A DNA stretch of 64,000 bases, taken from assembly GCA_019044685.2 (NCBI GenBank), contig JAGTXX020000002.1, positions 434,001 to 498,000 on the forward strand, in the 5' to 3' direction. Below the pieces are notes generated by a model. The model saw only the letters and a list, made by a program, of their open reading frames with translations, did not search any database and was not told where the DNA came from. Position numbers and translations under genes: made by a program. How positions within the stretch are numbered: the stretch's first letter is position 1; each line of letters begins with the position of its first letter. Below are positions 10,437 through 64,000 of the stretch, piece after piece. The stretch is from Nannochloris sp. 'desiccata' (Eukaryota > Chlorophyta > Trebouxiophyceae > Chlorellales > Chlorellaceae).

Positions 10437-10988
10437 TTATTTCTTCTCCGCCCTTTCCACCTGCCCCTTTGTCGTGTTCTCATAACTAAGCCATGCATTC
10501 CAAAACAGCCCAGCAGCGTTTACGTAGAGCACTCTACCAGCTGGTGGGACGTATAAAAAATTGAAAACATTGACAATAGGCCAAAATGCCGTCCCCGTGA
10601 GCAGAGTCGGCGGCGCCGCTTTCATCACTTTTTCTTTGCACTGCGCAAGAGATAAGCCTTCTAGAAGACCCATGTACGTGAAAAACGTAGCGACGTAGAT
10701 GGGGAAGATCGTAACTTGGCCTAGTGCAGTTTTTAACGCAGCTTGTCGCAGAGTAGCGCTTTGCCCTAGAGTTCTATCTAGCCATCGGAACGAGTGATGG
10801 AAGTATGGGCCGTGGAGGGTGAGTCCAACCATACCGAATTGGGCAGTCTGTTTTAAGTTGATTGAGATATCTTGGTTGGCAGATCGAGATCTGATTGCCT
10901 GACAAATGGCGTCTCCAGCGGCCATGACAGACGCACTCGTGAGAGCTGCTTTGAATACTGGTTTCCATCCTAGAGGTAAGGCTGGCAT
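10437..10988 (-). CDS. Mpv17/PMP22 family membrane protein, copy 1
   Basis: Single exon, 183 residues. The Mpv17/PMP22 signature is clear: HGPYFHHSFRWLD, the central FFTYMGLLEGLS, and the conserved C-terminal block TAFWPIVNVFNFLYVPPAGR followed by WNAWLSYEN. Members are four-segment proteins of the inner mitochondrial or peroxisomal membrane, some reported as channels. It lies head to tail with a second copy at 11275-11847, 286 bases away on the same strand, so the pair arose by tandem duplication. The two share most C-terminal motifs but differ at the N-terminus and C-terminal tail. Which membrane it occupies cannot be told from the sequence. Confidence 0.92.
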   Translation of the reverse strand: MPALPLGWKPVFKAALTSASVMAAGDAICQAIRSRSANQDISINLKQTAQFGMVGLTLHGPYFHHSFRWLDRTLGQSATLRQAALKTALGQVTIFPIYVATFFTYMGLLEGLSLAQCKEKVMKAAPPTLLTGTAFWPIVNVFNFLYVPPAGRVLYVNAAGLFWNAWLSYENTTKGQVERAEKK

Positions 10989-11274
10989 TTCTTTATTAGT
11001 AGCGTTTGCAGGTTGGCAACTTGATTAGCGTGCGGTCTATTTAAATATAGTAGTATAGTTAATTTCTAGATCAGTAATGTGATCAACGAGGGAACGCCCT
11101 TGCGTACCACAAGCAAAATGAGTTTCTGTGACAGCGGAAGGTTTCGTTAAATAATTTAACTTTTTAAGCATAGAAAATAATTTAAAGAACATAAAGAGAA
11201 AATATTGCAGGAAAAGAGAGGCTGTGGGGAAAAGTCAAATTCAAGTTGTCATTTAACAAAATAAGTCTTTGTAT

Positions 11275-11847
11275 TTATTCCTTTTTACTACTACTAGTAT
11301 TTCCATTCTTTTCTGTTTCCAAGTGTGCAGCATTCTCTACAGCATTCTCGTAGCTGAGCCATGCATTCCAGAACAATCCTGCAGCGTTTACATAGAGCAC
11401 TCTACCAGCTGGAGGAACATACATGAAATTAATAACAGTGACTGCGGGCCAAAACGCCGTCCCTGTCAGTATCGTCGGTGGCACCGCTGCAATTACTTTC
11501 TCTTTACACTGCTGAAGGGATAAACCTTCTAAAAGACCCACGTACGTGAAGAAGGCAGTGCTGTAGACGGGGAAGAAAGTTACTTGACTGATAGCTGCTA
11601 CTTTTGCAGCGGTAAGAAATGAACGGCTCTGAGCTCCGACACTTTTATCTACCCATCGGAAGGAGCTGTAGACAAGGGGTCCGTGGAGGGTAAATCCAAT
11701 GAGTGCCATACGCAAAGATTCTTTGAGATCAATTTGTATGTCTTGGTTGGCAGTTTTACACCTGATAGCTTGAAACATAGCATCGCCGGCACACATTACA
11801 GATGAACTCGTGAGAGCTGCTTTTAATAAGGGTGGAACCCTTGCCAT
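11275..11847 (-). CDS. Mpv17/PMP22 family membrane protein, copy 2
   Basis: Single exon, 190 residues and a tandem paralogue of the gene at 10437-10988. Shared blocks include LTSSSVMCAGDA near the N-terminus, HGPLVYSSFRWVDK, FFTYVGLLEGLSLQQCKEKV and VPPAGRVLYVNAAGLFWNAW. It differs by a longer Lys/Ser-rich C-terminal tail ending SSSKKE. No intron is present in either copy. The expected role is as for copy 1: a small multi-span organelle membrane protein. Both copies look intact, so neither is an obvious pseudogene. Confidence 0.92.
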   Translation of the reverse strand: MARVPPLLKAALTSSSVMCAGDAMFQAIRCKTANQDIQIDLKESLRMALIGFTLHGPLVYSSFRWVDKSVGAQSRSFLTAAKVAAISQVTFFPVYSTAFFTYVGLLEGLSLQQCKEKVIAAVPPTILTGTAFWPAVTVINFMYVPPAGRVLYVNAAGLFWNAWLSYENAVENAAHLETEKNGNTSSSKKE

Positions 11848-26726: not shown

Positions 26727-27352
26727 ATGTACCTTCCATCTGCAGACAAAGAAAATCAAGAGAATCATCTCAAATCAAAAACATCTTCAGGGGGAGGTGG
26801 CGTCCCTCTTGGTGGAGTAGTCGTTGCAGGTGCATTAACCGTCGGTGCCGGCATTGTAAAATTAGTTCAACGCCACCTGGTCCTCTCCTCTCAACTGGAA
26901 ACAACTCAAAGCGAGCTTCGACATACCACCAGTCAACTTAGCGAACTCTCTGATCAGCTGGATTACACAAAAGAGGAGCTCACGCAAGCTCAAAGTGAAT
27001 TAGAAACTTCAGTGACGATGCTGGAGCAAAGGACCAAGGAGCTTGCAGAGGAGCGATTTGCCTTGGAGGCTGCCCGAGGAGAGCTTGGATTAACACAGTC
27101 AAGGATTGGAATGATCGAGAGAGAATTAAAATCCACGAAAAGGCGAGCAAAACGAATTGAGTATTCATTTATTTATCTGAATAAAAGTAAAATCCAAAAT
27201 GGAATAATCAACGCTCCTGTTCTTTCTCTCTCTCTTTTTCTATTTGCAGGAACTTGTCTTCGTATGAGAGTTTATTGGATAAGGCACGTATGGATTTAAA
27301 TGGAGCGCGCTCAAATACTGAAGGAAGCCCTGGAGGATTCTGGGCGGCCTAG
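26727..27352 (+). CDS. N-anchored coiled-coil protein (family member)
   Basis: Exons 26727-27160 and 27250-27352 over an 89-base intron, giving 178 residues. A Ser/Gly-rich N-terminus leads into a Gly/Ala/Val-rich membrane segment at about residues 26-46 (VPLGGVVVAGALTVGAGIVK), then a near-continuous coiled coil (residues 50-145) with heptad-like SQLETTQSELRHTTSQLSEL. Exon 2 adds RI|ENLSSYESLLDKARMDL and ends GGFWAA. The layout matches the minus-strand cluster at 48-56 kb and the gene at 62059, although here the intron follows the coiled coil (phase 2) rather than the anchor. Function unknown; an organelle-membrane scaffold or tether is a guess from shape alone. Confidence 0.68.
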
Positions 27353-41621: not shown

Positions 41622-42970
41622 ATGCGATCGGACACTGAGTTTGCCAAAGCTCTTGTCGCTGCCATTGAAAGTGACGGAGACATGGACCGGGCAGTTGCAT
41701 ATTTCAAACAGATTTCTGCCCGTCCATTCCCTCACAATATTAAAAAGTTTATTCAAAGAGTTTGGGATCGCTACAAAGATGGAGAAATTAAAATTGCTGC
41801 CCGCGCCACACCTAAGCGAACAAAGTTAATTTCAGACGAGCAGGCACAGCAAGCTTCAGACATGTTTCTGCAAGGTGTGCAAGGACCCTCCGGCTGGCGT
41901 CCTGCAGGCAGCGCTAAACAGGTGAGCACTATGTTTCTTTTGTGTGTGTATGTGTTGCCGTCCAACTCGTCCCAGTGATTTTGCTTTTCAAAACTATTTA
42001 CCTTCCCATTGTTTTGCAGGCATGCATGGAGAATGAAGGACTAAAGGCTATCATCAAAGAAACAGGTTGTAGTCCAACTCAACTCTGGACAAGAGCAAAG
42101 CAGGTCAACCCCAAATTGCAAACGGTCCATATTCCCAAAAACTCTAAAATCAAGCCTACTCTAGTAGGCATTATTACCACCCAAAGGACCAAAGCAGAGG
42201 CTTTGACCCAAGCCGACAAAAATGAGCGCCTCCGTAAAGCTAACAAACATATGCAACGATCTATAAAGGTTCGTATGTGTGATACTTACATTGACGAGGG
42301 CGCTATTATGATCGGCAACATGCCAACTCTCCAGGCTATCACCGAGAAGGGAAAGCGCATGCAGAGTGGTATCCCTCTTCCTCGTGCTATGCAAATGCCA
42401 AGTTCAAAGTTTCCTAAAGAAGCCTGTGGGAAATTACATTTTGTTATCGCTATCCATCCAAATCTCGGTCTCGTTTATCTTGATTTTTTAAGTTCTACTA
42501 CAGACCACCCTATGCATGGGTGTTACAAGAAATCTGATGGACGCAGTTATAAAGGAATTAGTTCTAAAGAGTTCAGTAAAGTAATGAAGGAAATTATGGC
42601 TACATTGAGGACGCTGCAGACGAAACACCCCAAGAATTTTCTTGGAGGTGTCAAAGTTGTTCTGAATAACATGCCCTTTCACTCAGCTGAGATTGAAAAA
42701 CTAGGCAAGCGAGCTCTAGAGATTCCCCCTAAATCACCAGAGTTTCAAAAGCCAGTGACGCGGGTAATACGTGCGATTAAGACTGAATTCTGGAAAAGAT
42801 ATGCTGAGATGCTTAGCAAGCCTGACAATCCTGGCTATATTCCTTTTAAAAGAGCAAAATCGTTGTTGCGAAGAGTTGTTAAAGCTGTGGTGAAGCCAGA
42901 AAATATCGCAAAGGATGTGCATGCAATGCTTCCTATTTACAAAGCGATAGCTGATGCAAAAGGTGGCTAA
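41622..42970 (+). CDS. Tc1/mariner-like transposase relative, apparently catalytically altered
   Basis: Exons 41622-41921 and 42020-42970 over a clean 98-base GT-AG intron give an intact 416-residue protein. The order of parts suggests a Tc1/mariner/IS630-type transposase: N-terminal helical DNA-binding-like region (to about residue 185), then CDTYIDEGAIMIG resembling the first-Asp strand, KVVLNNMPFHS in the place of the usual second-Asp strand (D-N-x-P-x-H), and IPPKSPEFQKPVTRVIRAIK in the place of the SPDLNPIE motif. By this reading the first Asp is kept, the second is Asn and the third acid is missing. An open, spliced gene without a working triad suggests a domesticated protein or a recently decayed copy. 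No terminal inverted repeats were found around it. The family call rests on short motifs. Confidence 0.55.
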
Positions 42971-46039: not shown

Positions 46040-47227
46040 TTATTTAAAATACCCACTAGTGCACTGATTAGATTTCGTCACTTTCCCTCGCGCAGTCAAC
46101 AACGTGCACATCCCAACACCGCTACTCTCCAAATCCACTTTCTTCCACGTCCATGCTTTGCATGCTGTCATCATCGCACCACCACCACCACCACCGCTCC
46201 TACACATTTCAAGACACTTGTCAAAGGTCTTCGTCTTTTTCGTACTCAATACTGCACCTCCACTATAACATTGGGAGTACCCAGGCATATTTAATCTCAC
46301 TGGAGCACGTGCGCCTCGCAAATTATACATACTCATGGTGTCATCTATCCAAGTTTGCCAATATTTGATATTGACGGGAACATCAATCTCCATTACCGAT
46401 CCACAATCCCCTGCTGGTCCAAACGAAGTGACGCCTACTTGCACCGGTGCTTTTCCACGGTTCGTAATCAAATAAGGACCGCCAGAATCACCACCGCAGG
46501 TAGTTTGCATGGTGTCTGGCGGGACACCTATGCAAAAATGATCATCGTCTAGTTCATAGTCAAAAATAACTTCATGGAGTTGGTCACATTCAGCAGTGGG
46601 CAGAATTTTCCCTGTAGTATACATAAGGTGCGAGGCCATCTTTCCGTTATCCATTTGACCCCATCCTACAACAGTTAATGTCGTTCCCGCTGACATGTTT
46701 GTTGCAGCGCTTGCCAACTGGACCGGTTTAACTGACGATGGGATGGGCTTTGCTAATTTTATTAACCCCACATCTCCAAAACTTGAAGTTTCTGGGGTGT
46801 ATTGCGCCGGAATGAAGAATTCTTCAATCGACCCAGCATCGTATTGATCATCGTATTCCGTAGAGCCGAAATAAATGTGGCTGTTGGTTTTATCTGCAAA
46901 CATGCTGGTCCAGTCATCAAAAATGCAATGCCCTGCGGTGAGGATGACACGTGGGGCAATAACGGTGCCTGTACAGATACCACCGTCGACATCAAAGTAG
47001 ACGACAAAGGGGAATTGGCCGTCGGTAGCTTCTTGGCCATAGGCGATTCGTCCGCCTGATGCTTTGAGGGTTCTCCTGCGGCGGGGGAGGCGGGCGCTGG
47101 AGGAGGAAGAGGCAGATTGGGAAGCTCGTTCTTCGCTGGAGAGCGCTATGTAACTGCCACTATCAGCTGCGCTAACGTGGAAACATGCCAAGAAAGCGAA
47201 GGTTGTGTAAAGTAAGTAAAGGTTCAT
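46040..47227 (-). CDS. secreted trypsin-fold serine protease with PAN/apple-like tail
   Basis: Single exon, 395 residues from the Met at 47227; an in-frame Met ten codons upstream is less likely because the signal peptide MNLYLLYTTFAFLACFHVSA begins here. A Ser-rich propeptide with RLPRRRR precedes the activation site GGR|IAYG. The S1 fold has His100 in LTAGHC, Asp152 in GDVGLIKL and Ser248 in CGGDSGGP, so the triad is complete. The residue six before the active Ser, which sets primary specificity, is Thr rather than the Asp of trypsin, so cleavage after Arg/Lys is unlikely. Residues 320-395 form a Cys-rich region (SQCYSGG, DKCLEMCRS, TACKAWTW, MCTLL, NQCTSG) like a PAN/apple module, usually a carbohydrate or protein binder. 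A decayed copy lies 600 bases upstream. Confidence 0.9.
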   Translation of the reverse strand: MNLYLLYTTFAFLACFHVSAADSGSYIALSSEERASQSASSSSSARLPRRRRTLKASGGRIAYGQEATDGQFPFVVYFDVDGGICTGTVIAPRVILTAGHCIFDDWTSMFADKTNSHIYFGSTEYDDQYDAGSIEEFFIPAQYTPETSSFGDVGLIKLAKPIPSSVKPVQLASAATNMSAGTTLTVVGWGQMDNGKMASHLMYTTGKILPTAECDQLHEVIFDYELDDDHFCIGVPPDTMQTTCGGDSGGPYLITNRGKAPVQVGVTSFGPAGDCGSVMEIDVPVNIKYWQTWIDDTMSMYNLRGARAPVRLNMPGYSQCYSGGAVLSTKKTKTFDKCLEMCRSGGGGGGAMMTACKAWTWKKVDLESSGVGMCTLLTARGKVTKSNQCTSGYFK

Positions 47228-47809: not shown

Positions 47810-48349
47810 ACTCTTATCCCTTCCTTGAAACACAGTTCTTTGCTCTCTTCCTCCACGTTCATGCTGTGCATGCTTTGTTCTTCCTACATACCTCACAGCA
47901 CTTCCCAACTTTTTTCCTTTTCTCCTCTGAAAGCGTCCACTTCACCTCTTTGTCTTCTTCAAGATGCTTCCCTCTTTCCACCACAGCAACCCTCTCATTC
48001 TTCCTCCCATGTTATGTATACTCGGCATATCTTCTACCCACGTGCGCCAATACATGACACTGGTAGACACATTGATATTATCAGTGCCATCACCACATTG
48101 ATGACTTTCTATAGGAAAAAAAGCATTTTTTGCTCCCTGAATTTAATATTGTGAGGGCGGATTCCAGTATACAGAGCCTATATACACCGCTGAATGGGTC
48201 TTATTAATCCATCCATGGCTATCTCTCAAATGTGGAGCAGTTAGAACAACAGAAGAAGTTATCAGGCTGCCAGAGCACATAAAATCTTCACCTTGAGAGA
48301 AAGCAAGCGGTAAATGAGAACTGATCTTTTGTAGCAGGCTGACCCGCAT
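47810..48349 (-). pseudogene. decayed tandem copy of the trypsin-fold protease gene
   Basis: Three pieces match the intact gene in order. (1) 48349-48146: FMCSGSLITSSVVLTAPHLR and NKTHSAVYIGSVYW match the strand before the active His and the following loop; LTAGHC has become LTAPHL. (2) About 48090-48010: NINVSTSVMYWRTWVEDMPS aligns with EIDVPVNIKYWQTWIDD. (3) About 47875-47815: the C-terminal Cys-rich part, where the Trp of CKAWTW is a TGA stop. The stretch carrying the catalytic Asp and Ser is deleted, the frame is broken and no signal peptide is visible. The DNA match around TTCCACGTCCATGCT-like text at 46145 and 47850 is also clear. It is a non-functional duplicate. Confidence 0.82.
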
Positions 48350-48574
48350 GTACTAATATTGATCAATTACAATTTTTAAAATTAATATTGATAGCTTTTG
48401 GTGAAATACATCATTGTGGAACATCTCGGCCCAATCTCTCCGTGCCCCGCGCCTCGGCCCGACTAGTAGGAATCCTACTAGTAGTCCTGCCACTAAATCT
48501 CAAACAAATGACAACCCCACTACGTTTGACCTTACTCCATAGACTACACTACAAACACATGTCTTAGTCTATCA

Positions 48575-49321
48575 TCAAATAAAAAAGTTTAAGATTGACT
48601 TCAGACGGCCTTCGTTTTGAGCCTTACCACCCAGAACAACCGCTGCTCCAGGCACAGCTACTGCTGCTGCGATTGTCGCAGTTTCCCCCCTTTGGCCAGC
48701 TTTTTCTCCAATTACTTCACTTTCGGTTTTCCTGGTCCGCTGGCTTTGAAGACCGGCAGATTTTTCCTGCTCAGCCTTGAGAGCTGCCGTCAGCTGGGCG
48801 ATTTCAGATGTTTGCAAAGCCAACACGCGGTCATGCTCTTTCAAGTTCAACTTCAGACCCACAAGGTCGTTACTAGTTTGAGCCATTTCGGTCTTCAATT
48901 TTTTCTTGTCAGCAGCATACGCCTGGACTTTGGCCTGCTCGGCAGTTAAGGCGGCGTTGAGAGAAATAATCGCTTCTTCCTTTGCTTTGAGTCGTTTCTC
49001 AAGGGAGAATTTTTCCTCTCTGCTTGCAATGAGCAGCTGCAAAAGATACATAGGATCAGGATGCCAAAGATGAGTTCGGCAAGAAAGGTCCGTCAGCAGG
49101 CCACGCCGTCAATTTCAAGGTTCAAGCAACAGGAAAGAGCTAGAGCACTAAAGACAATTGAAAAGCAGCCCTTATTAGAGCTTGGTTGATTATAATAAGC
49201 TTACATTGCGTCTCTTCAACTTTTCGGTCTCGATTTCGTCTTGAAAGGCTTTATTTCCACACAGGAAGCCATAGGCTCCGATACCAGCACCAATTAAAAA
49301 CGCACTGAGTGATTGATCCAT
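48575..49321 (-). CDS. anchored coiled-coil protein, cluster gene 1
   Basis: Exons 49321-49205 (39 codons) and 49036-48575 over a 168-base intron in phase 0; 192 residues. Exon 1 holds the anchor, SLSAFLIGAGIGAYGFLCG, with small residues spaced as in Gly-zipper membrane helices. Exon 2 is a long coiled coil (about residues 42-150; EKRLKAKEEAIISLNAALTA, then KLKTEMAQTSNDLVGLKLNL), followed by a second Ala/Val-rich segment TATIAAAVAVPGAAVVLGG and the tail GRLKSILNFFI. The second segment could be another membrane span, making a helix anchored at both ends. Not recognised as any known family. First of seven same-strand genes of this type. Confidence 0.7.
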
Positions 49322-49744
49322 TCTACTTGGTTAATTACGTCTATTATGGTTTGCAGATATAATTTATTAGATAATATTATGATTCTGTGAGAGATCGGCG
49401 GAGTTTAGCGGTTGAACAGCTCCGAAGGCGGCGGAAAACCGAGGTGGAGACATCACCAAGGAAGAGGAGGGAGAAAATGTGGGCTAAGAAAGTGAAATCC
49501 GCGCTGGTTTCTGAAACCTTACTAACTAGGGTTATAAATCTTACATAGTGTAGAAATCCGTTTATCAATTATGAAGGAATCATTAGCGTGCTGTAAGGGG
49601 GGCAATTATTATGTTAAAGCCACGTAAAAGAAGGGTACTCTGAGATTTGGAGAGAAAAACAAAGTTCCCACTTTGCATGTTGGGGGATCGCAAAGGCTGC
49701 GATTAAGGTTTTAGAAAGGAGCAAAGGCTTCAAGAACCACTCTT
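49322..49744. other. intergenic between cluster genes 1 and 2
   Basis: 423 bases with no supported gene. The minus frame at 49377-49568 has no protein-like character. No W-box-like motif noticed here. Confidence 0.4.
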
Positions 49745-50257
49745 TTAAAAGAATTTAGGTACGCGGCGCTTGCTATCAGCTTTCTTCTCGTCCTGAGAGG
49801 AACTAGAAGCACCAGCAGAAGTAGAAGTAAGAGCGGGAGCGTTACGGGCAGCAAGAGTTTTTGCCATGCGTTCATGTTTAGCCTGTGATTCAAGAAGCTT
49901 CTGGGTCATTTCTTGCAACTGATACCGCAAGTGAGCATTGTCAGCTTCAAGTTCAATTTTTTCTTCTCTTAACTGACGGTTTTCGTCCACAAGCTGTTGA
50001 TTGTGGCTGCTGACCTTGGAAGTTACGGCTTCCCGCTCCTACAAAAGTTAAATAAGAAACAAACTTTGAGTTTTTGAGCAGGATAAGGGCCCTCGATTTG
50101 CCTTTATTTAGATATATATACACCAAAGTACAACATAAAAGATAGCTCTTACCTCGAGGGAGGCTTCAGCTTCCTTGTTGGCGGCCTCTTTCATGACAAC
50201 CCCGAGAGTAAAACCCATAACGGTGCACATCGCACCGCGAATAACAGGAGCAATCAT
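49745..50257 (-). CDS. anchored coiled-coil protein, cluster gene 2
   Basis: Exons 50257-50153 (35 codons) and 50038-49745 over a 114-base intron in phase 0; 132 residues. Exon 1: MIAPVIRGAMCTVMGFTLGV, a Gly-rich membrane segment, then an acidic helix ending KEAEASLE. Exon 2 is a coiled coil (about residues 36-90; QLREEKIELEADNAHLRYQL) followed by a Ser/Ala-rich linker and the tail SKRRVPKFF. Neither module matches a family I know. The tail resembles those of cluster genes 1 and 4 and of the 62059 gene. Upstream DNA contains GACAAAGTCAAAGTCC at 50361-50376. Confidence 0.7.
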
Positions 50258-50500
50258 CCTGTCTAGACGCTAAATATATTAAGTTGTATAATTAATATAA
50301 TTAGTTTTGATATTAATGCTGGGGGTTTTATGGCGGGTTCTATTACACAAGGTTTGAAATGACAAAGTCAAAGTCCAAAAACGGCTGGCTGGGAATTGTA
50401 AAGAAAGGAATAAACAGCACCAGCATTGACCACGCTAAATGGTAATCACTTAAGGTTCAATTTAATATGATCTTGATCTAGAGCGATCTTAGTAAGTCTA

Positions 50501-50794
50501 TTAAATAGAAATATTGGAAAAAGCAAGGTCTCTGGCGTCATTGAGCTGATCTTGAAGCTTTTCCAACTGCTCCTGGAGTCCCCGAGTATTAGACTCTTCC
50601 AAAGCCAAAGCTTGGCTGAGCTCGTATATCTGCTCTTCAAGCTCTTTAATTTCCTTCAAAGCTTCGTTTAATACATTACGTAATTCATACGTCTGCTCAA
50701 GCTTGGAGGCAAGGGCTGGGGAGCGTGCTCCCATGGCAGCAATGCCAATAACCACCGGGAGGAGAATAAGAGGGAGAGCAGGAGGAATCTTCAT
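50501..50794 (-). CDS. anchored coiled-coil protein, cluster gene 3 (single exon)
   Basis: 97 residues without an intron. MKIPPALPLILLPVVIGIAA gives a membrane segment at residues 5-21, followed by a coiled coil from about residue 28 to 88 (LEQTYELRNVLNEALKEIKE, then GLQEQLEKLQDQLNDARDL) and a short end FSNISI. It is the smallest and simplest member, just anchor plus coiled coil, with no aromatic tail. Unknown function. Confidence 0.68.
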   Translation of the reverse strand: MKIPPALPLILLPVVIGIAAMGARSPALASKLEQTYELRNVLNEALKEIKELEEQIYELSQALALEESNTRGLQEQLEKLQDQLNDARDLAFSNISI

Positions 50795-51111
50795 TTCGGC
50801 TTGTTAATACGAGTTGCTCTTTAGTATTAAAGTATATACTTATAATTTATTAAGAAGGAAGGGGGGTAAAAGAGCAGGCTATCGAGGGTGAGCAAGTAGA
50901 GCGTCTGAAGGTTCAAGGTTACAAGTTCGTGGGATTCTCTCCAGGAACAAATTTTACTTTTTACAGCAATTACGTGGCAAATTAGACATGTTACAAGAAT
51001 AAACAGCTCTTTAAGCTGCTAGTCTAAAGACCTTTTAAGTAATGTAGGATAGAAAATGCAGAATGCAGCTTTACATGTGCAGAATAGAGAATGAACCTTG
51101 ATCGCAGCCAT
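50795..51111. other. intergenic between cluster genes 3 and 4
   Basis: 317 bases with no supported gene; no obvious repeat or motif. Confidence 0.4.
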
Positions 51112-51891
51112 CTACCACCATCTGAACAACCTTCTCCTCCTTCTCGTTCTCTCCTGCGCTTGTGGGGCAGGTTGTTGACCTTGAAGTTGAGCAATATAGT
51201 CGATCTCAAGCTCCGCTACAGTAGGCACTGCAGCAGCATTTACTTCGAGATTTTCCGCGACTGGAAGCTCAGCAGCACCTCTTTGAGTGTACCCGGCCAG
51301 TTCCTCTTCCCGGCCTCGTCGAGCCAACTTTTCTAAAAACAGCTCTTTTGTGAGGTACAAAACTTGGAGCTGTTTCTCGGTCAGTGTACGAGTCATGGAG
51401 TCAAGTACCATAGCGCTTTCAGCGAGAGTGATGAGCACTTCGTGGTTGTAGCCGCTGTTGATACTATAGCGAGCAAATTGAATATTGAGTCGGTCACGGG
51501 CTTTAATTGCTTTCTCTATAAGCTCAGGGATAGGTATTTCATCTTCTTCATCGGTAGAAGCTTCATGCTGAGTGTTTTGTAGTGTTGCTTCTTGAGGTTC
51601 CATGTTGTTGGAAGCGCCATCTTCAGCAGATTGGGGTAAAGTAAAATTAAACAAGGCCTGGAGCCAACCAAAAGTTAATTAGCGAGCGAGACTAGTGAGT
51701 GATATTATTGTGATCATTTGACGAGATATTGAGCGCTTTAATGGGCAATATATGTTGATCAGTGATCTTACCAAAAGCTTTGAATAGCTAACGCCTACAA
51801 TGAAGCCCCAATTCTGGAGAAAAGTCTTCTGAGTAGACCGCTGTTCATTTTGAAGCTCGTGGCCCTGTTGGTGTTCCTCTTGAGCCATCAT
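51112..51891 (-). CDS. anchored helical protein, cluster gene 4
   Basis: Exons 51891-51772 (40 codons) and 51657-51112 over a 114-base intron in phase 0; 221 residues. Two Met codons open exon 1 (MMAQEEHQQGHELQNEQRST); a modest hydrophobic segment crosses the splice (WGFIVGVSYSKLL|ALFNF). Exon 2 is acidic and then helical: DEIPIPELIEKAIKARDRLN, VLDSMTRTLTEKQLQVLYLT and ELFLEKLARRGREEEL. The tail is RTRRRRRLFRWW, a basic run ending in two aromatics. Here the anchor follows a hydrophilic N-terminus, unlike genes 1-3. Unknown function. Confidence 0.65.
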
Positions 51892-52095
51892 GATCAATCT
51901 AAAATATCTTTTAAAGATAATAATTGTTACAATTAATTGAAATTCGGACGTATAGAAACTTTTAGGCATTCAGAATAGAACCTAGATATTTGAATTGGTC
52001 AACCAGGTTGAGGCGCCGGAAAATAGATTCTACTCTGAATCTACATGCTGTCCTGCATTTCAAGCCCTTACGCACCACCGCAGACCTGCTCAAAG

Positions 52096-52398
52096 TTACA
52101 GACCCGTATCATAGATTTCTTCATCAGTCATAGTGGCGTATTGCTCCAAGTCAGGAGGGAGAATCCTGAAACTGCTCACCCAGCGAGCAGCGTTCCTCGC
52201 CGCCAGCCTTGCATCAACCAGCTGTCGCCTCAGATCTTGCTCATTCTGGATATTTTGGGTTGCTTCTTCGCTTTCCTGCACTGCTTGTTGATGCTGCTGG
52301 CAAGCTTCGAAAGCACACTTGCCGATAAGGACGGCGCAGGTGCCCGTAAGGAGGGCGAGTTGCATGGTTTGCAGGTGGTGTGCAACGAAACCAAACAT
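52096..52398 (-). CDS. small anchored helical protein, cluster gene 5 (single exon)
   Basis: 100 residues; the start may be the Met at 52398 or the one at 52365 (MQLALLTGTCAVLIGKCAFE), which puts the membrane segment at the very N-terminus. A Gln/Glu-rich helix follows (QQHQQAVQESEEATQNIQNE and QDLRRQLVDARLAARNAARW), then an acidic end TDEEIYDTGL. Not recognised. It lies in series with the other cluster genes on the minus strand, and has the same anchor-then-helix order. Confidence 0.6.
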   Translation of the reverse strand: MFGFVAHHLQTMQLALLTGTCAVLIGKCAFEACQQHQQAVQESEEATQNIQNEQDLRRQLVDARLAARNAARWVSSFRILPPDLEQYATMTDEEIYDTGL

Positions 52399-52804
52399 TG
52401 TGCCAGAGCTGGGAATTTCTTCTTAGAAAATTGCAGTAAGTACACGCTGAGCACTATTTAGATTTATTTTTGAACCTTGAACTCGCAGATCCTTAACACA
52501 GCCTTAACTGCAACCTGGGGAACTCCTTGGAACAGCTCTTGGGAACATTATTAATTCTAGTTAGTTCAAAAGAACTACATACTAAAGTATCTCAATGTAT
52601 TTATTGCACTACAATGCACCTTTAAAGCTTGATAACGGGGAAAACAGAGCCAATAACTGATTCCTATGGTCATTAAAATATGCCAGCTTTCCCGCCACTC
52701 CAGCATCGACAGCAACATAGCTTTACACTTTGAAAGCCACGCATCTTTTTTTCAGGCGGTATTTATCAAGCAGATATGAGTTTATTTATCATTAAGCCTT
52801 TATT
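52399..52804. other. intergenic before the retropepsin relic
   Basis: 406 bases with no supported gene and no recognised motif. Confidence 0.4.
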
Positions 52805-53219
52805 TTAGCGATGTCTTGATCTGAAAATTACGATTCCGCCATTGTGCTCCACAGTGACAAAGTTTTTGCGAAAGTCAATCTTTTGATTTTTTGCATCAAA
52901 CCAGGGATTTCCAAGGAGCAAATCGTAAGAATTATCTCCTGGAATCACGCTAAAGTCGTTAAGAACATCCTGATAAGGTCCATCAGCAAGTCTAACTCTC
53001 TCTTTTATTTTCTCACACCGGTGGCACTCGCCATCTGCCGTGCGGACAATCAGTGCAGTTGAGAGGTCTCTGCTTGGTATGTGTTTCTTTCTTCGAATTG
53101 ACGGTTATGACATTCACTGAAGCTCCTGTACCACGCATGATATTAGCTTTAAAGCATTCCACTCTACCTAGGACCACCATTAGGTATGATGGGGCAGGGT
53201 TAGAAGCAGCAGTCTGCTC
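52805..53219 (-). pseudogene. broken retropepsin-like aspartic protease domain (retroelement relic)
   Basis: Reading the minus strand, one frame gives YLMVVLGRVECFKANIMRGT then GASVNVI, matching the retropepsin start except that the catalytic Asp of D-T-G is Gly. After a +1 frame change near 53050 the other frame gives LADGPYQDVLNDFSVIPGDN, then YDLLLGNPWFDAKNQKIDF, the flap-distal core typical of Ty3/Gypsy-type or DDI1-like proteases (LLGxxWL), up to a stop at 52807-52805. A further in-frame stop lies upstream near 53240. No reverse transcriptase or integrase is seen nearby and no LTRs were noticed. It is a dead fragment of a retrotransposon or of a gene derived from one. Confidence 0.7.
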
Positions 53220-53671
53220 TTTGGCACTGACATCGTCTCATCGACCTCCTTTACTCTTCGCTGCCAATTGCTGGCTACGCTCTTGTTTTTTTATAATTCG
53301 TATTGTTTGCTCTCTTTTCTTCAGTTCACTCATGCTGCTGTTGGTGAGGGTCGAAAGCACTCTCGGCAACAAGGATTAGATAGGTGACTGTAAGGGATTG
53401 TGAGCTGAAAGGTGTTTGCATTAATAACAAACATTATATCCCAGCTGCAAATATAGCTTTAAAGCAGCTATCGTAATATGCTCTGAGCGACGTCTTGATC
53501 GCAAAGCTTGTGCTTCTGCAGAGTCTTACCTGAAACCTTTGAAGACTTCTTGGGACAGCTCTGGGGGGCATTTTGCAAATACAAACTTTACAGATTTGCA
53601 GGTTGTTTTATAATGCACTTAAAGCTCAGAATTTATAAAAGAAAATATAATACAGAAAGGTAGTACTCTTA

Positions 53672-54311
53672 TTATTGTTTATAGTGTTCCATAGGTGCAC
53701 AGCAATGCCAGCTCTTTGGGCCCTGCATAGCCGACAGCTGCATAGCCCTACACTTTGCTTTCCTTGCATTTTTTCGCGTAATTTGCCAATTAATAATATC
53801 GTTGTTAATCTGAATCAACCATGCACCATTGCCAATATCATTCATTCTTTTTAGATCCATGACGCGTTTCTTCATTTGTCCTATCTTCGCTCTGTCAGCC
53901 TCTTTGGCGTGAACACAGCACCGAGGACCAGCAACCCAAGCAGCAAGGAGGAACATGGCGTGCTCTGCTTCTGCCACTAAAATCGTGTCTTTAAGCTTTA
54001 AAATCTCTTTGTGGGTATTGCACCACGTTTCTATGATTCTAAAACTGATTCAGCTTTCTTTTCTTTTCGGTGCTCCACCTGCATCGAGCGAGCGGGAGAC
54101 AGGAGAAAATAGATACCTTGGTTTCGTTACATCGAGCACATGTTTGAAAGTTAAAAATTGTCTAAGTTCTTACATTGATTGAATTAAGTACATCTTTGTG
54201 ATGTTTGCTCTCTACTTTAGAGCGTTGGACGTCCAATAGCCTCACAAGGCCAACACCTGAAGCAGCACCGGCTGCGGCAGCCAAGCCAGCTGCAGCGATT
54301 ATATTTGACAT
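53672..54311 (-). CDS. anchored protein, cluster gene 6
   Basis: Exon 1 is 54311-54174 (46 codons) with the strong donor AAT|GTAAGA. It reads MSNIIAAAGLAAAAGAASGV, an Ala/Gly-rich segment, then RLLDVQRSKVESKHHKDVLN. Exon 2 runs to the stop at 53672; the acceptor is uncertain, 53995 (AAG|CTT) being the best in-frame choice I see, giving 153 residues. Exon 2 contains a second hydrophobic stretch (AMFLLAAWVAG), a basic helix and a Cys-containing end (KSWHCCAPMEHYKQ). No aromatic tail and only weak coiled coil. Because the splice acceptor lacks a good pyrimidine tract, decay of this member is possible. Confidence 0.5.
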
Positions 54312-54583
54312 TTTGACTTAGTTGTGACGATATTTTTACCTTGTCTTACAAGTTTATAAATTAATATAAAGTTAATTTTATAAGGGATAATCCGTTTAGA
54401 TGAGCTCTAAGGTGTGTCCCTTGGGAATATAGCTCCTAGCTTGACCCTTGAATAAAAATTTCAAATTTTGGTGTGCTGGATACCCAGTACGTAATACGGT
54501 GTACTAGTATGTTAAATGCAATAAGGCTTGTTCATTGCTTATATTTCCGTGTAATCCCCCTTCAATTAACCCATGAATGCTGT

Positions 54584-55746
54584 CTACTCAAGGCATGCTC
54601 CAGTTCTTTCTGTAGAGAACGCCTCAACTCCCTGCAGCACCAAAGATCCGGTGCTGCCAGAGGTTCCTGGCGACTCAGAACCACCATGACCGGTACTGCA
54701 GCGCACCCCTCTGGTGATAGCTCCTTTCCTTCCATCCGCCATACTCTGCATCAAATCTTTAATCGCAGTAGAAAACTTCGATTGAAAACTAGAAGACAGC
54801 TTTTCTTGAGCATCACGGACAGACTCAAAAAGAGAATAGCAGGCAGCCACTTCTGCAGAAACTTTGTCTAGTTCAGACTGGGCAGCAGCAGGATGAGCGA
54901 GATCATATGCAGCAACTTGTGCACGCCATGCCAATAAAGCTTGGGAAGAACGTTCAAGACGGGTTAAACCCTGGGATAAGGAGTCAATAACAGTTTGTTG
55001 AGAAGCAGTTTGGCCAGCGTCAATTTCGATCGAATCAATTTTCGCAGTCAACTCCTCCACCTCGGCTTTTAACGCTGCGACTGCAGCAGTAGAAGATGCT
55101 TGGAATTGAATTTTAGAGACGATGAGGTCAGTAACGGTTGTTTTCAGGTCAGCCAGTTCAGTTTGAGTGGCGGTGAGGGTATTTTTGAGAGTAGCAAGTC
55201 TAGTCTGTGGGCCCATAGATTCCTGCGTATTCGGAGTCAAAGATGCCTGCTAAAAGTTTACGTTTCAAGGGAGGAAGGGAGGGAAGCTTAAATTTTTTCA
55301 AATATTTTAATGATGGCGGCATCGATAAAATGGTTTAGCAGCGAGATACGTGTGAAACGAAGAAGCAGTAATATTCTTACCTTGAGAATTGGTTTAAAAG
55401 GAGTAACAGGCGCGGTAATATCAGACTTTAAACCAGTTATCCCCTCCTTTTGCTGTTTTTGGCGTTGCGTTTGACTTTGCTTGCTACGGCGTCTTTTCAC
55501 AAACACCAAAGCTACCAAGGAAAACAATATTACAAGCAAGGAAGCTGCCAGAATCGTCCTTGCAGACTCGTCTGTGGCAACTTTATATGACATATACGTA
55601 TAGACCATACCAAGTTTGTGGATAGAAGCATTTCCCAGCGTTTTTGCGTTAGAATAACGTTTTAAGCACCATTTGGCAACAGTCTTGCGACGATGCAAGC
55701 TGAAAGTAGATTGCAAACGGCGTTGAACACCTTGAAAAATGGCCAT
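54584..55746 (-). CDS. anchored coiled-coil protein with KWC-type N-terminus, cluster gene 7
   Basis: Exons 55746-55381 (122 codons) and 55246-54584 over a 134-base intron in phase 0; 342 residues. The N-terminus is basic and amphipathic, with HRRKTVAKWC (Lys-Trp-Cys at 25-27). One membrane segment lies at about 64-83 (ILAASLLVILFSLVALVFVK), followed by a Lys/Gln-rich stretch. Exon 2 is a coiled coil from residue 125 to about 285 (TLKNTLTATQTELADLKTTV, ALKAEVEELTAKIDSIEID) with a Gly/Ser-rich end. Exon 1 is paralogous to that of the gene at 59414-60091. Upstream DNA (55851-55909) has four GTCAA/TTGAC motifs. Function unknown; the basic start could be a mitochondrial targeting signal. Confidence 0.72.
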
Positions 55747-59413: not shown

Positions 59414-60091
59414 CTAGTTGTTCATGGCACCGCGAGCAGTGGGCTTCTTCTGAGAGCGGGTGACACACCTGGCAGCCACGAAGGCCACAGCTACGATGCC
59501 AGAGAGGACGATCACAGCAGGGTGAGGAGGGCGGAACTTATTACCAACAAAAGCAGTGTTTAATTCGTCATTATCGGTGGTGATAGTCTTAAGCTGCATG
59601 AGTGAAAACAGATGAATTTGAATATTTTTTTCTTATCAATCTAGGAACGAAGGTTTTAATTAAATAACTAAAGCTAGCGACACTTAATACTATATGCATT
59701 GCAACCTTACTTTATTTACAGGCAAGTTGATCTTCTTGGAGGAATTTGTCTGTTTCTTCCTCGCCATGGCTCCGCCAGTATTGGTTGACTGGCGGTTTTT
59801 GCGCCTTTTATTATTGACCATCTGAACTGCCCCGCCCACCATCCAGGAAGTACCGATTGCGAACACGAGCGATACGCCAAATAATCTGAGGTACTCAGAA
59901 TTGGCAAGGGCGTGGCGTAGAACGCTGGCATCGAGGATTAAACGGAGCTTCCCGAGAAGTGTCTTGACAAGCGTCTTGATGGTTTGGTAGCCAGAGATCG
60001 CGTTCTCTTGGCACCACTTACCGATATCCTCACGGCGTTGAGAATTCATGACATTGGACCAAGTCTCTTTGATAACAGTGACGCGTCTCAT
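59414..60091 (-). CDS. two-span membrane protein with KWC-type N-terminus
   Basis: Exons 60091-59711 (127 codons) and 59593-59414 over a 117-base intron in phase 0; 186 residues. The N-terminal part has Arg-Arg at 19-20 and Lys-Trp-Cys at 25-27 in NSQRREDIGKWCQENA, exactly the positions seen in cluster gene 7, so the first exons are paralogous. A membrane segment lies at about 70-92 (LRLFGVSLVFAIGTSWMVGG), then a basic linker; exon 2 adds a second, PPHPAVIVLSGIVAVAFVAA, and a basic end. Here the second exon brings a membrane span instead of a coiled coil. Function unknown. It is divergent from COQ5 (328 bases). Confidence 0.68.
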
Positions 60092-62058: not shown

Positions 62059-62659
62059 CTAGAAAAGTCTGCCAAAAAGACTCTTCCTCTTGGCATTTTC
62101 TGCATGCAAAGCTGCCAGCTCAGTTTGAGCTGTCTTCAGCTCGGCTTCCAAAGCAGCGAGTTTGGTCTTCAAAACTTTCCGTTCAGACTCGATCTGAGTG
62201 CGGGTCGTCTCGACAGTGGCGTCAGCAGCAGCGCGAGCAGAGACCAAGTCCTCTTTCAAGGTGGCGACCTCAGCGATGAGAATGTCACGGTCTTTTTGGA
62301 TAATGAAGAGCTTGTGCTTCAACTCAGAAGTAGCGTTGGCAGCAGCAATATCCTTCAAAAAAAAAAACAGAAATTGAAAAGAAAGGGAAAAGTTAGTTGA
62401 CTTTTTCAGCGTAACTGAAAAAAACTGACAATTTCGAGGTAATCAACGATTTTCAAGCAATCAGGCGAGAGCAATTGCGTATACATCCAGAAATATTCAC
62501 TATGTATCAGTGACTTACATCTGTCGTGGATTGAGTAGAGGAACTGGCCACAGGAGTAGTAGGTATCTTTGCCTTTTTCTCCAAAGCCTTGCTCTTGGCA
62601 ACGATGATTGCTGCGGTGGCAGCACAGCCGAGCAGAATTGCTTTAACGTAAAATGACAT
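62059..62659 (-). CDS. anchored coiled-coil protein (family member)
   Basis: Exons 62659-62519 (47 codons) and 62352-62059 over a 166-base intron in phase 0; 144 residues. Exon 1: MSFYVKAILLGCAATAAIIV, a membrane segment at residues 4-21, then a Lys-rich and Ser/Thr-rich linker. Exon 2 is almost wholly coiled coil (LKHKLFIIQKDRDILIAEVA, LEAELKTAQTELAALHAEN) and ends KRKSLFGRLF, basic plus aromatic. It has the same exon layout as cluster genes 1 and 2 although it lies 7 kb away beyond several housekeeping genes. Upstream DNA has a dense TTGAC cluster. Function unknown. Confidence 0.72.
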
Positions 62660-63160: not shown

Positions 63161-64000
63161 TTAGAAATGCAATTTAATTCCAATAATTACACGTGGCTCT
63201 ATTCCTGAAGTTTTCCCCATTGGCACCAACGCCTCCATTGTAGTCGTTGTCCTAGGCCCGCCATCAACAGGCTTCTCTCCAATCCTTTTCGCTTCAAATT
63301 TCATCACATTCACGCCTAGTACATAGCTAGTATCAAGCTTTAAACTATCCCCAGCAAACCTGCTTTTCAGATTTAATTGAGCTGGTGTCTTATTGCCTAC
63401 AGTAGCGGCAACAGAATGCACAGCGCCTTTTCTCAGTTTAGCTCTTGCTGTCATTTTTAATCCTAATTTTGAATGCATTCCCAGTTCTGCTTTGTAGGAG
63501 TTGTCATCTCCGGAGTAGAGTTTGGTGCTGACGCCACCCATACGAGTTAGTGTATCCCAGTGCAGGTCGGTGATGCTGTTGCTACCGAGAGCATTGCTGT
63601 GAACGAGCTTGAAGGCGGGGTTGGGAGCCAAGAACCACTTGTTGTTTGGGACTGCTTGAGAGACAGTCAGTTTGGTGTTGGCGTTGACTGATTTGTCCAG
63701 TTTCATAAAGGTGTTCTGCGAGTGGGAAGAGAGGGAGGGGAGGAAGAGGGATGAGAATTTTGTCTCCTTGTGTGGGACAAGAGCGGGAGAGGTGTGTGAT
63801 CAAGGGCATTGAATTGATCAAAGAACAGAATAACTTAGATGTCGTAATTCTGGTGCGGTTTAAAGACAGAGTTTTTAAATGGAAACATCTCAATAACTTA
63901 CCCTAGCAGGAACGTGATGTTCTAAACTCCAATTATTACCTTCAATCTGGAGTCCTGAGAATCCATTCGGCTGAGTGGTAAATGCACTTCCCTGGAGACA
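63161..64000 (-). CDS. partial gene, possible beta-barrel outer-membrane protein
   Basis: The gene enters from the right edge: partial exon 64000-63902, intron 63901-63716 (186 bases), last exon 63715-63161, all phase 0. The visible 218 residues show alternating hydrophobic and polar residues with frequent Gly and Lys, as in beta strands: SGLQIEGNNWSLEHHVP, NANTKLTVSQAVPNNKWFLA, KLGLKMTARAKLRKGAVHSV, LKLDTSYVLGVNVMKFEAKR, and a C-terminal strand PRVIIGIKLHF ending in Phe, as many barrels do. A plastid or mitochondrial outer-membrane pore (OEP or VDAC type) is a reasonable guess, but I recognise no specific family. The N-terminus is outside the window. Confidence 0.6.

What the first reader, a model, noticed from the sequence alone, without database searches (positions are those of the whole stretch)
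48575..55746. Cluster of seven same-strand small anchored proteins, with anchor and helical modules split by phase-0 introns
Seven consecutive minus-strand genes encode unrecognised proteins of about 97-342 residues with a membrane segment near the N-terminus, followed in most by a coiled coil or long helix. In cluster genes 1, 2, 4, 6 and 7 and in the genes at 59414 and 62059, the intron falls in phase 0 after (in gene 4 within) the anchor region, at codon 35-47 or 122-127. A shared intron phase and position across otherwise dissimilar proteins looks like a modular family: one anchor exon combined with varying second modules. Nothing like this is known to me.
Basis: partly seen in the sequence, partly recalled or inferred. 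Interest (0 to 1): 0.82.

Follow-up and report, generated by a model that had tools for sequence, protein, structure and literature searches.

The report
Lineage-restricted cluster of anchored algal proteins
A green alga carries a run of small, unnamed proteins that look membrane-anchored; two of them share an anchor exon that is joined to different second parts, but the shared intron layout that drew attention also turns up in ordinary genes nearby.

Summary
The window is from Nannochloris sp. 'desiccata', a trebouxiophyte green alga. Genes 5 and 6 are weaker; gene 6 is more likely 61 aa.

Phase 0 is the usual phase of first introns here (39 of 72 others), and four other genes, three recognisable as TAF6, UTP15 and eL30, break in phase 0 at codon 36-42. 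The cluster is still enriched for this layout (about p 0.001, post hoc), but layout alone does not make a family.

(1) The first exons of gene 7 and of 59414 are homologous (hhalign E 1.6e-7), each with four relatives that seem to keep the junction; their second exons are unrelated by BLASTP. (2) Genes 1, 2, 4 and 62059 end in a basic-aromatic tail, kept in relatives of genes 2 and 4.

Best reading: a lineage-restricted set of anchored helical proteins, perhaps tethers. Function is inferred, not shown.

The parts
48575..49321 (-). g1, 192 aa: exon 1 49205-49321 (anchor), exon 2 48575-49036 (helical, ends GRLKSILNFFI); intron 168 nt, phase 0, codon 39
   Evidence: gene finder; splice scores
49745..50257 (-). 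g2, 132 aa: exon 1 50153-50257 (anchor), exon 2 49745-50038 (helical, ends KRRVPKFF); phase 0, codon 35
   Evidence: relative P0005, 72% identical over 54% of g2, keeps the terminal FF
50501..50794 (-). g3, 97 aa, no intron: hydrophobic N-terminus plus helix
   Evidence: no convincing second copy found
51112..51891 (-). g4, 221 aa: exon 1 51772-51891, exon 2 51112-51657; ends RRRRRLFRWW; phase 0, codon 40
   Evidence: NCBI P0001 differs by one residue; relatives P0002 and P0003 keep the tail
52096..52398 (-). g5, 100 aa candidate without intron; weak
   Evidence: not called; 0.7% of 146 non-coding ORFs score as high
52805..53104 (-). weak retropepsin-like fragment (retroelement relic?) interrupting the run; not a member
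   Evidence: Pfam RVP_2 E 0.027, below cut-off; score like non-coding ORFs
54031..54311 (-). g6 candidate, probably 61 aa: exon 1 54174-54311 (anchor), exon 2 54031-54078; phase 0, codon 46
   Evidence: read; scores; not called
54584..55746 (-). g7, 342 aa: exon 1 55381-55746 (KWC motif, hydrophobic segment, basic stretch), exon 2 54584-55246 (helical); phase 0, codon 122
   Evidence: four relatives of exon 1 (P0014-P0017)
59414..60091 (-). g8, 186 aa: exon 1 59711-60091 homologous to g7 exon 1, exon 2 59414-59593 (second hydrophobic segment); phase 0, codon 127
   Evidence: NCBI P0006 identical, P0012 differs in exon 1; four relatives (P0009, P0010, P0011, P0013); hhalign
62059..62659 (-). 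g9, 144 aa: exon 1 62519-62659 (anchor), exon 2 62059-62352 (helical, ends RKSLFGRLF); phase 0, codon 47

Best explanation
This is a lineage-restricted set of small nuclear genes of Nannochloris and near relatives. Most encode a likely membrane anchor near the N-terminus followed by a helical part. Shown: the gene models agree between two methods for g4 and g8, several genes have relatives, and g7 and g8 are diverged paralogues in the anchor exon with no detectable similarity in the second exon. Shown but post hoc: a basic-aromatic C-terminal tail in g1, g2, g4 and g9. Inferred: the proteins sit in one membrane by the N-terminal segment, the helical part oligomerises or acts as a spacer, and the tail binds a second acidic membrane or a partner, so that the set works as tethers or scaffolds, perhaps on an organelle envelope. 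The phase-0 5' introns mostly reflect what first introns look like in this genome; only g7/g8 show a common ancestral intron. Split of confidence: real lineage-restricted genes with one paralogue pair about 0.85; tether or scaffold function about 0.25.
For: Gene finder and NCBI models. Coding scores of g1-g4 and g7-g9 above all 146 background ORFs (the finder was trained on sequence that includes some of them). Relatives seen only in N. desiccata and in records without an organism name. g7/g8 homology against three control profile pairs at 0.3-0.8%. V within one residue of the exon-1 end in 8 of 8 relatives, followed by R or S in 5 of 8, as a phase-0 GTAAG donor would read. Tail in 4 of 7 called cluster genes against 3 of the other 113 (hypergeometric 1.4e-4), kept in P0002 and P0003 (basic, LFR) and P0005 (FF).
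Against: The tail rule was framed after seeing the sequences, and g3, g5, g6, g7 and g8 lack the tail. AlphaFold models have low confidence (mean pLDDT 53 for g4, 46 for g8), so no fold supports a rod or tether. Anchors are a hydropathy call only. No relatives were sought for g1, g3, g5, g6, g9 or for the second exons of g7 and g8. A second public model of g8 (P0012) has a shorter exon 1. The reverse profile search (g8 family against g7) is weak (E 0.068, first non-self hit). The full-length g2 model appeared in no public record found. No RNA or protein data.
Confidence: 0.45

Rival explanations
1. No common function: a chance neighbourhood of unrelated, lineage-restricted membrane proteins, of which two (g7, g8) are duplicates. 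The shared intron layout reflects first introns of this genome.
For: Other first introns 39 of 72 phase 0, fifth decile of position codon 41; 5 of 72 at codon 35-47, four of them phase 0, among them genes I recognise as TAF6, UTP15 and eL30; no convincing alignment among the short anchor exons; profiles of g4 and g2 unrelated; clustering p up to 0.18.
Against: Joint phase and position p about 0.001 and 4 of 6 against 5 of 72 in the codon 35-47 band, both post hoc; shared C-terminal tail in four genes with conservation in two; relatives of g2 and g8, and of g7 and g8, list contigs of equal length.
Confidence: 0.4
2. A full modular family in which one ancestral anchor exon was shuffled by phase-0 introns onto several second modules and then diverged past recognition.
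For: g7/g8 first exons homologous, second exons not, intron apparently at the same place; four other split genes break at codon 35-47 in phase 0, more often than other genes.
Against: No convincing similarity among the short anchor exons; no further copies of anchors found in the genome, with the caveat that such searches also missed g7/g8; the same break in unrelated genes.
Confidence: 0.12
3. Some members are annotation artefacts: g5 and g6, and possibly the end of g7, are not real coding sequence. (Can be true beside the other readings.)
For: g5 and g6 not called; the 61-aa g6 has a borderline score, 2.1% of background as high; retropepsin-like fragment beside them.
Against: Only 0.7% of background ORFs score as high as g5 and none as high as g6 exon 1.
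Confidence: 0.45

Closest known systems
Signal-anchored outer-envelope proteins of chloroplasts and mitochondria (OEP7, Toc64, Tom20 type)
   Same: In g1, g2, g6 and g9 a short N-terminus, one moderately hydrophobic segment, then at least three basic residues in the next 15; rule taken from passages of PMC4010795.
   Different: Sequence relation to them not tested; location unknown; g1 and g2 have more acidic than basic residues in that flank; g7 lies above the 0.4 cut-off on the scale I used.
Polybasic-tail membrane tethers such as yeast Ist2 or STIM (works like, not member)
   Same: Membrane anchor, spacer, basic C-terminal part (starts of the abstracts of PMC12617493 and PMC3814058 seen in the listing; details recalled).
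   Different: No Pfam hit at cut-off in the cluster proteins; the spacer looks helical by a home-made score and low-confidence models, not disordered; the tail is short and basic-aromatic; membrane binding not tested.
Ordinary phase-0 first introns of this compact genome
   Same: Same phase and similar codon in genes that I recognise as TAF6, UTP15 and eL30 (names from recognition, no search).
   Different: g7 and g8 share the intron through homology of the exon before it.

Membership tests
Modular anchor-exon family | anchor exon homologous between members | tested here: inconclusive
   Met for g7/g8; not met among g1, g2, g4, g6, g9. The whole set is not filed as one family.
Modular anchor-exon family | second modules unrelated (g7/g8) | tested here: met
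   g7 against g8 exon 2: best BLASTP E 0.82; no profile comparison was possible.
Modular anchor-exon family | intron at the homologous place and phase in members and relatives (g7/g8) | tested here: met
   V within one residue of the junction in 8 of 8 relatives, VR or VS in 5 of 8; indirect, since only conceptual proteins were seen.
Modular anchor-exon family | intron layout confined to the family | tested here: not met
   39 of 72 other first introns phase 0; four other genes with phase 0 at codon 36-42, although the layout is enriched in the cluster.
Signal-anchored envelope proteins | moderate hydrophobicity of the segment (below 0.4) | tested here: inconclusive
   g1, g2, g4, g5, g6, g8, g9 below, g3 0.41 and g7 0.66 above, on an octanol scale recalled from memory; the passages seen do not say which variant is meant.
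Signal-anchored envelope proteins | three or more basic residues after the segment | tested here: inconclusive
   Met for g1 3, g2 3, g6 4, g7 7, g8 5, g9 5 in the next 15 residues; not met for g3 (2), g4 (0) and g5 (1).
Signal-anchored envelope proteins | located in the envelope | not testable with these tools
   needs tagged proteins
Polybasic-tail tether | C-terminal basic tail that binds a second membrane | tested here: inconclusive
   Sequence part met in g1, g2, g4, g9; binding not testable.
Known Pfam or NCBIfam families | hit at the curated cut-off | tested here: not met
   Pfam: none at cut-off for spliced g1, g2, g3, g5, g7 exon 2, g4 (as P0001), g8, g7 exon 1, g9 and 61-aa g6. One search scanned all 12 members of the g7/g8 exon-1 set but shows no cut-offs (best E 0.00087, in P0016, which one search shows below cut-off). 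NCBIfam: none for g4, g8 and exons or ORFs of g1, g2, g3, g5, g7, g9; g6 not given.

The most novel reading that the evidence does not exclude
A linked set of envelope tethers in the Nannochloris lineage, built by putting a membrane-anchor exon in front of different helical modules through phase-0 introns (g7/g8 the recent enough example) and closed by a shared basic-aromatic tail that grips a second membrane.
Probability: 0.1. Interest if true: 0.6.

Novelty: new member of a known kind. Interest (0 to 1): 0.36.

Why it matters
It gives one small case of an anchor exon paired with different second exons in a compact algal genome, with relatives to date it, and a protein family (g7/g8 exon 1) that has no Pfam model at cut-off. 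If the tether reading held, it would show how new membrane-contact proteins arise in one lineage. As it stands it is mainly a set of lineage-restricted membrane proteins.

Tried and rejected
Second copies of each of the nine proteins in the own genome: none convincing (best hit outside the query's own gene E 0.011, 22% identity, with g9). These searches also failed to link g7 with g8, so they are not proof of absence. Relatives of g4 in viral contigs: 40 stretches matched a pattern, none confirmed. Solved structures: best E 0.78 for the g7/g8 exon-1 family and 0.4 for g4, not significant. AlphaFold for g4 and g8: low confidence, so no fold search was run. The stretch 52450-54070 as a repeated element: only itself found. 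Cyclin-docking RxL motif in the tails: considered from recall; the relative P0003 (RRRRWRLFRG) does not fit it. ER-export FF motif: considered from recall, not tested. The first two gene-finder runs failed and the first complete one fused neighbouring genes because introns cost too little; one search is the version used. Its training set includes called genes over 150 aa, hence some cluster genes.
Full report
Source and gene models. The window is C2:434001-498000 of a 21.55 Mb, 18-contig genome. NCBI proteins identical or nearly identical to g4 and g8 are named Nannochloris sp. 'desiccata', and the size agrees with the 21.6 Mb, 45.0% GC and 9,123 genes listed for N. desiccata UTEX 2526 in passages of PMC12636532. 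I wrote a small gene finder (frame-specific Markov scores, splice-site matrices, Viterbi) and ran it on 264 kb: the window plus 100 kb on either side. It genes and 172 introns; 9,123 genes in 21.6 Mb would give about 112. A direct reading of the sequence gives g6 an intron at 54173-54079 and a 61-aa product. One public model of g8 (P0006) equals mine; another (P0012) leaves exon 1 at codon 84, but four relatives carry on beyond that point.

How unusual is the intron layout? Leaving out the seven called cluster genes, 78 of 166 introns and 39 of 72 first introns are phase 0; the fifth decile of first-intron position is codon 41. Five of the 72 lie at codon 35-47, four of them phase 0: a long secreted-looking protein and genes that I recognise as TAF6, UTP15 and ribosomal eL30. 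So the layout exists elsewhere, but it is commoner in the cluster: 4 of 6 called introns against 5 of 72 (Fisher p 0.0012). All six called introns being phase 0 has p about 0.02, four of six within any 13-codon band p about 0.09, and both together about 0.001 (0.0001 with g6), all chosen after the fact.

How unusual is the clustering? Of 120 genes I marked six as small, with a hydrophobic N-terminus and a good heptad score: those at -2921, 26727, 48575, 49745, 50501 and 62059. Three are adjacent (p 0.009) and four lie within ten genes (p 0.016), but other scan widths give 0.04, 0.07 and 0.18. The scores are home-made and the gene at -2921 is borderline.

Are they one family? No cluster protein finds a convincing second copy in the genome, though the same searches did not link g7 with g8. 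Pairwise alignments against 300 shuffles, 45 pairs per exon, give one strong pair among the first exons, g7 with g8 (z 8.8). The other pairs below p 0.03 are weaker: first exons g2-g4 (z 2.3), g3-g4 (2.9), g6-26727 (3.2); second exons g1-g3 (4.1), g3-g4 (3.5), g9-26727 (3.9), where helix-rich composition and heptad order can mimic homology (for g3, g5 and 26727 the split was my own). With relatives added, the g7-family and g8-family first exons align over 83 columns (hhalign 93.9%, E 1.6e-7), while three control pairs of profiles stay at or below 0.8%. In a search of 5,096 ORFs of the 264 kb the g7 profile picks g8 as its best non-self hit (E 1.3e-5); the reverse is weaker (E 0.068, again the first non-self hit). 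The second exons are unrelated by BLASTP.

Relatives. A profile of the two first exons found 12 proteins, all with E 4.2e-20 or better: three are g8 of N. desiccata or nearly so (P0006, P0007, P0012), one is g7 itself (P0008), four are relatives of g8 at 65-72% (P0009, P0010, P0011, P0013) and four of g7 at 55-64% (P0014-P0017). g4 has two relatives (75% and 56%) and g2 one besides itself (72%). P0009 and P0016 list the same longest-contig length (25,365), and P0005 and P0011 another (77,987); if these are the same contigs, which is inference, g7 with g8 and g2 with g8 are linked in relatives too.

A shared tail. g1, g2, g4 and g9 end in GRLKSILNFFI, KRRVPKFF, RRRRRLFRWW and RKSLFGRLF. Under a loose rule 7 of 120 genes have such an end: these four, a trypsin, a porin-like protein and one long protein. 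Four of the seven called cluster genes gives 1.4e-4, but the rule was made after seeing them. Separate support is that relatives of g4 end in RRRRLFRW and RRRRWRLFRG and the relative of g2 ends in GFGFF with a changed stretch before it.

Mechanism. The anatomy (anchor, helical spacer, basic-aromatic end) fits a tether or scaffold between membranes. Hydrophobicity and basic flanks of g6, g8 and g9 fit the rule for envelope-targeted signal-anchored proteins in PMC4010795 (passages); g7 does not, and the scale used was recalled. Structure predictions were too poor to help. I rate the function at about one in four.

Known families. No cluster protein given to Pfam reached a cut-off, nor did those given to NCBIfam (g6 not given). 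Hits below cut-off are mostly of the coil or single-helix kind.

Literature. Searches for Nannochloris, desiccata and genome, Nannochloris, Picochlorum, nuclear genome and introns, orphan coiled-coil transmembrane proteins of green algae (no paper) and locus-tag and species names (swamped by an unrelated word) listed no paper whose title concerns this cluster. The genome paper cited in PMC12636532 (Sanders et al. 2022) did not appear in the listings and was not read.

Verdict. Seven of the nine genes are well supported as gene models, and the relatives found so far are all from this lineage or unnamed; the intron layout is enriched but not particular to the cluster; the modular idea is right for one pair.

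Noticed in passing
window 48143-48352: Trypsin-like fragment (Pfam Trypsin E 0.0015, below cut-off) next to the intact trypsin gene at 46040-47227, on the same strand: probably a decayed duplicate.
   Followed up: partly
window 52805-53104: Weak retropepsin-like open frame (RVP_2 E 0.027, below cut-off) inside the cluster; the surrounding 1.6 kb found only itself in the genome.
   Followed up: partly
window 26727-27097: Another small gene with a hydrophobic segment near the N-terminus and strong heptad pattern, on the + strand, outside the cluster.
   Followed up: partly
window 10437-11847: Two adjacent minus-strand genes of 183 and 190 aa that look like Mpv17-type duplicates (recognised from sequence, not tested).
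   Followed up: no
window 41622-42970: Predicted 416-aa gene that looks like a Tc1/mariner-type transposase (recognised from sequence, not tested).
   Followed up: no
L040, about 1414 and 4889: Two 377-aa predicted genes on opposite strands with identical hydropathy and heptad scores, so perhaps an inverted recent duplication.
   Followed up: no
window 63161-63706: Porin-like protein ending in a beta-signal-like LHF, without any Pfam hit for the open frame; perhaps an outer-membrane pore (recognised from sequence).
   Followed up: no
P0006 against P0012 (59414 gene): Two public annotations differ in where exon 1 ends (codon 127 against 84), with the same second exon.
   Followed up: partly
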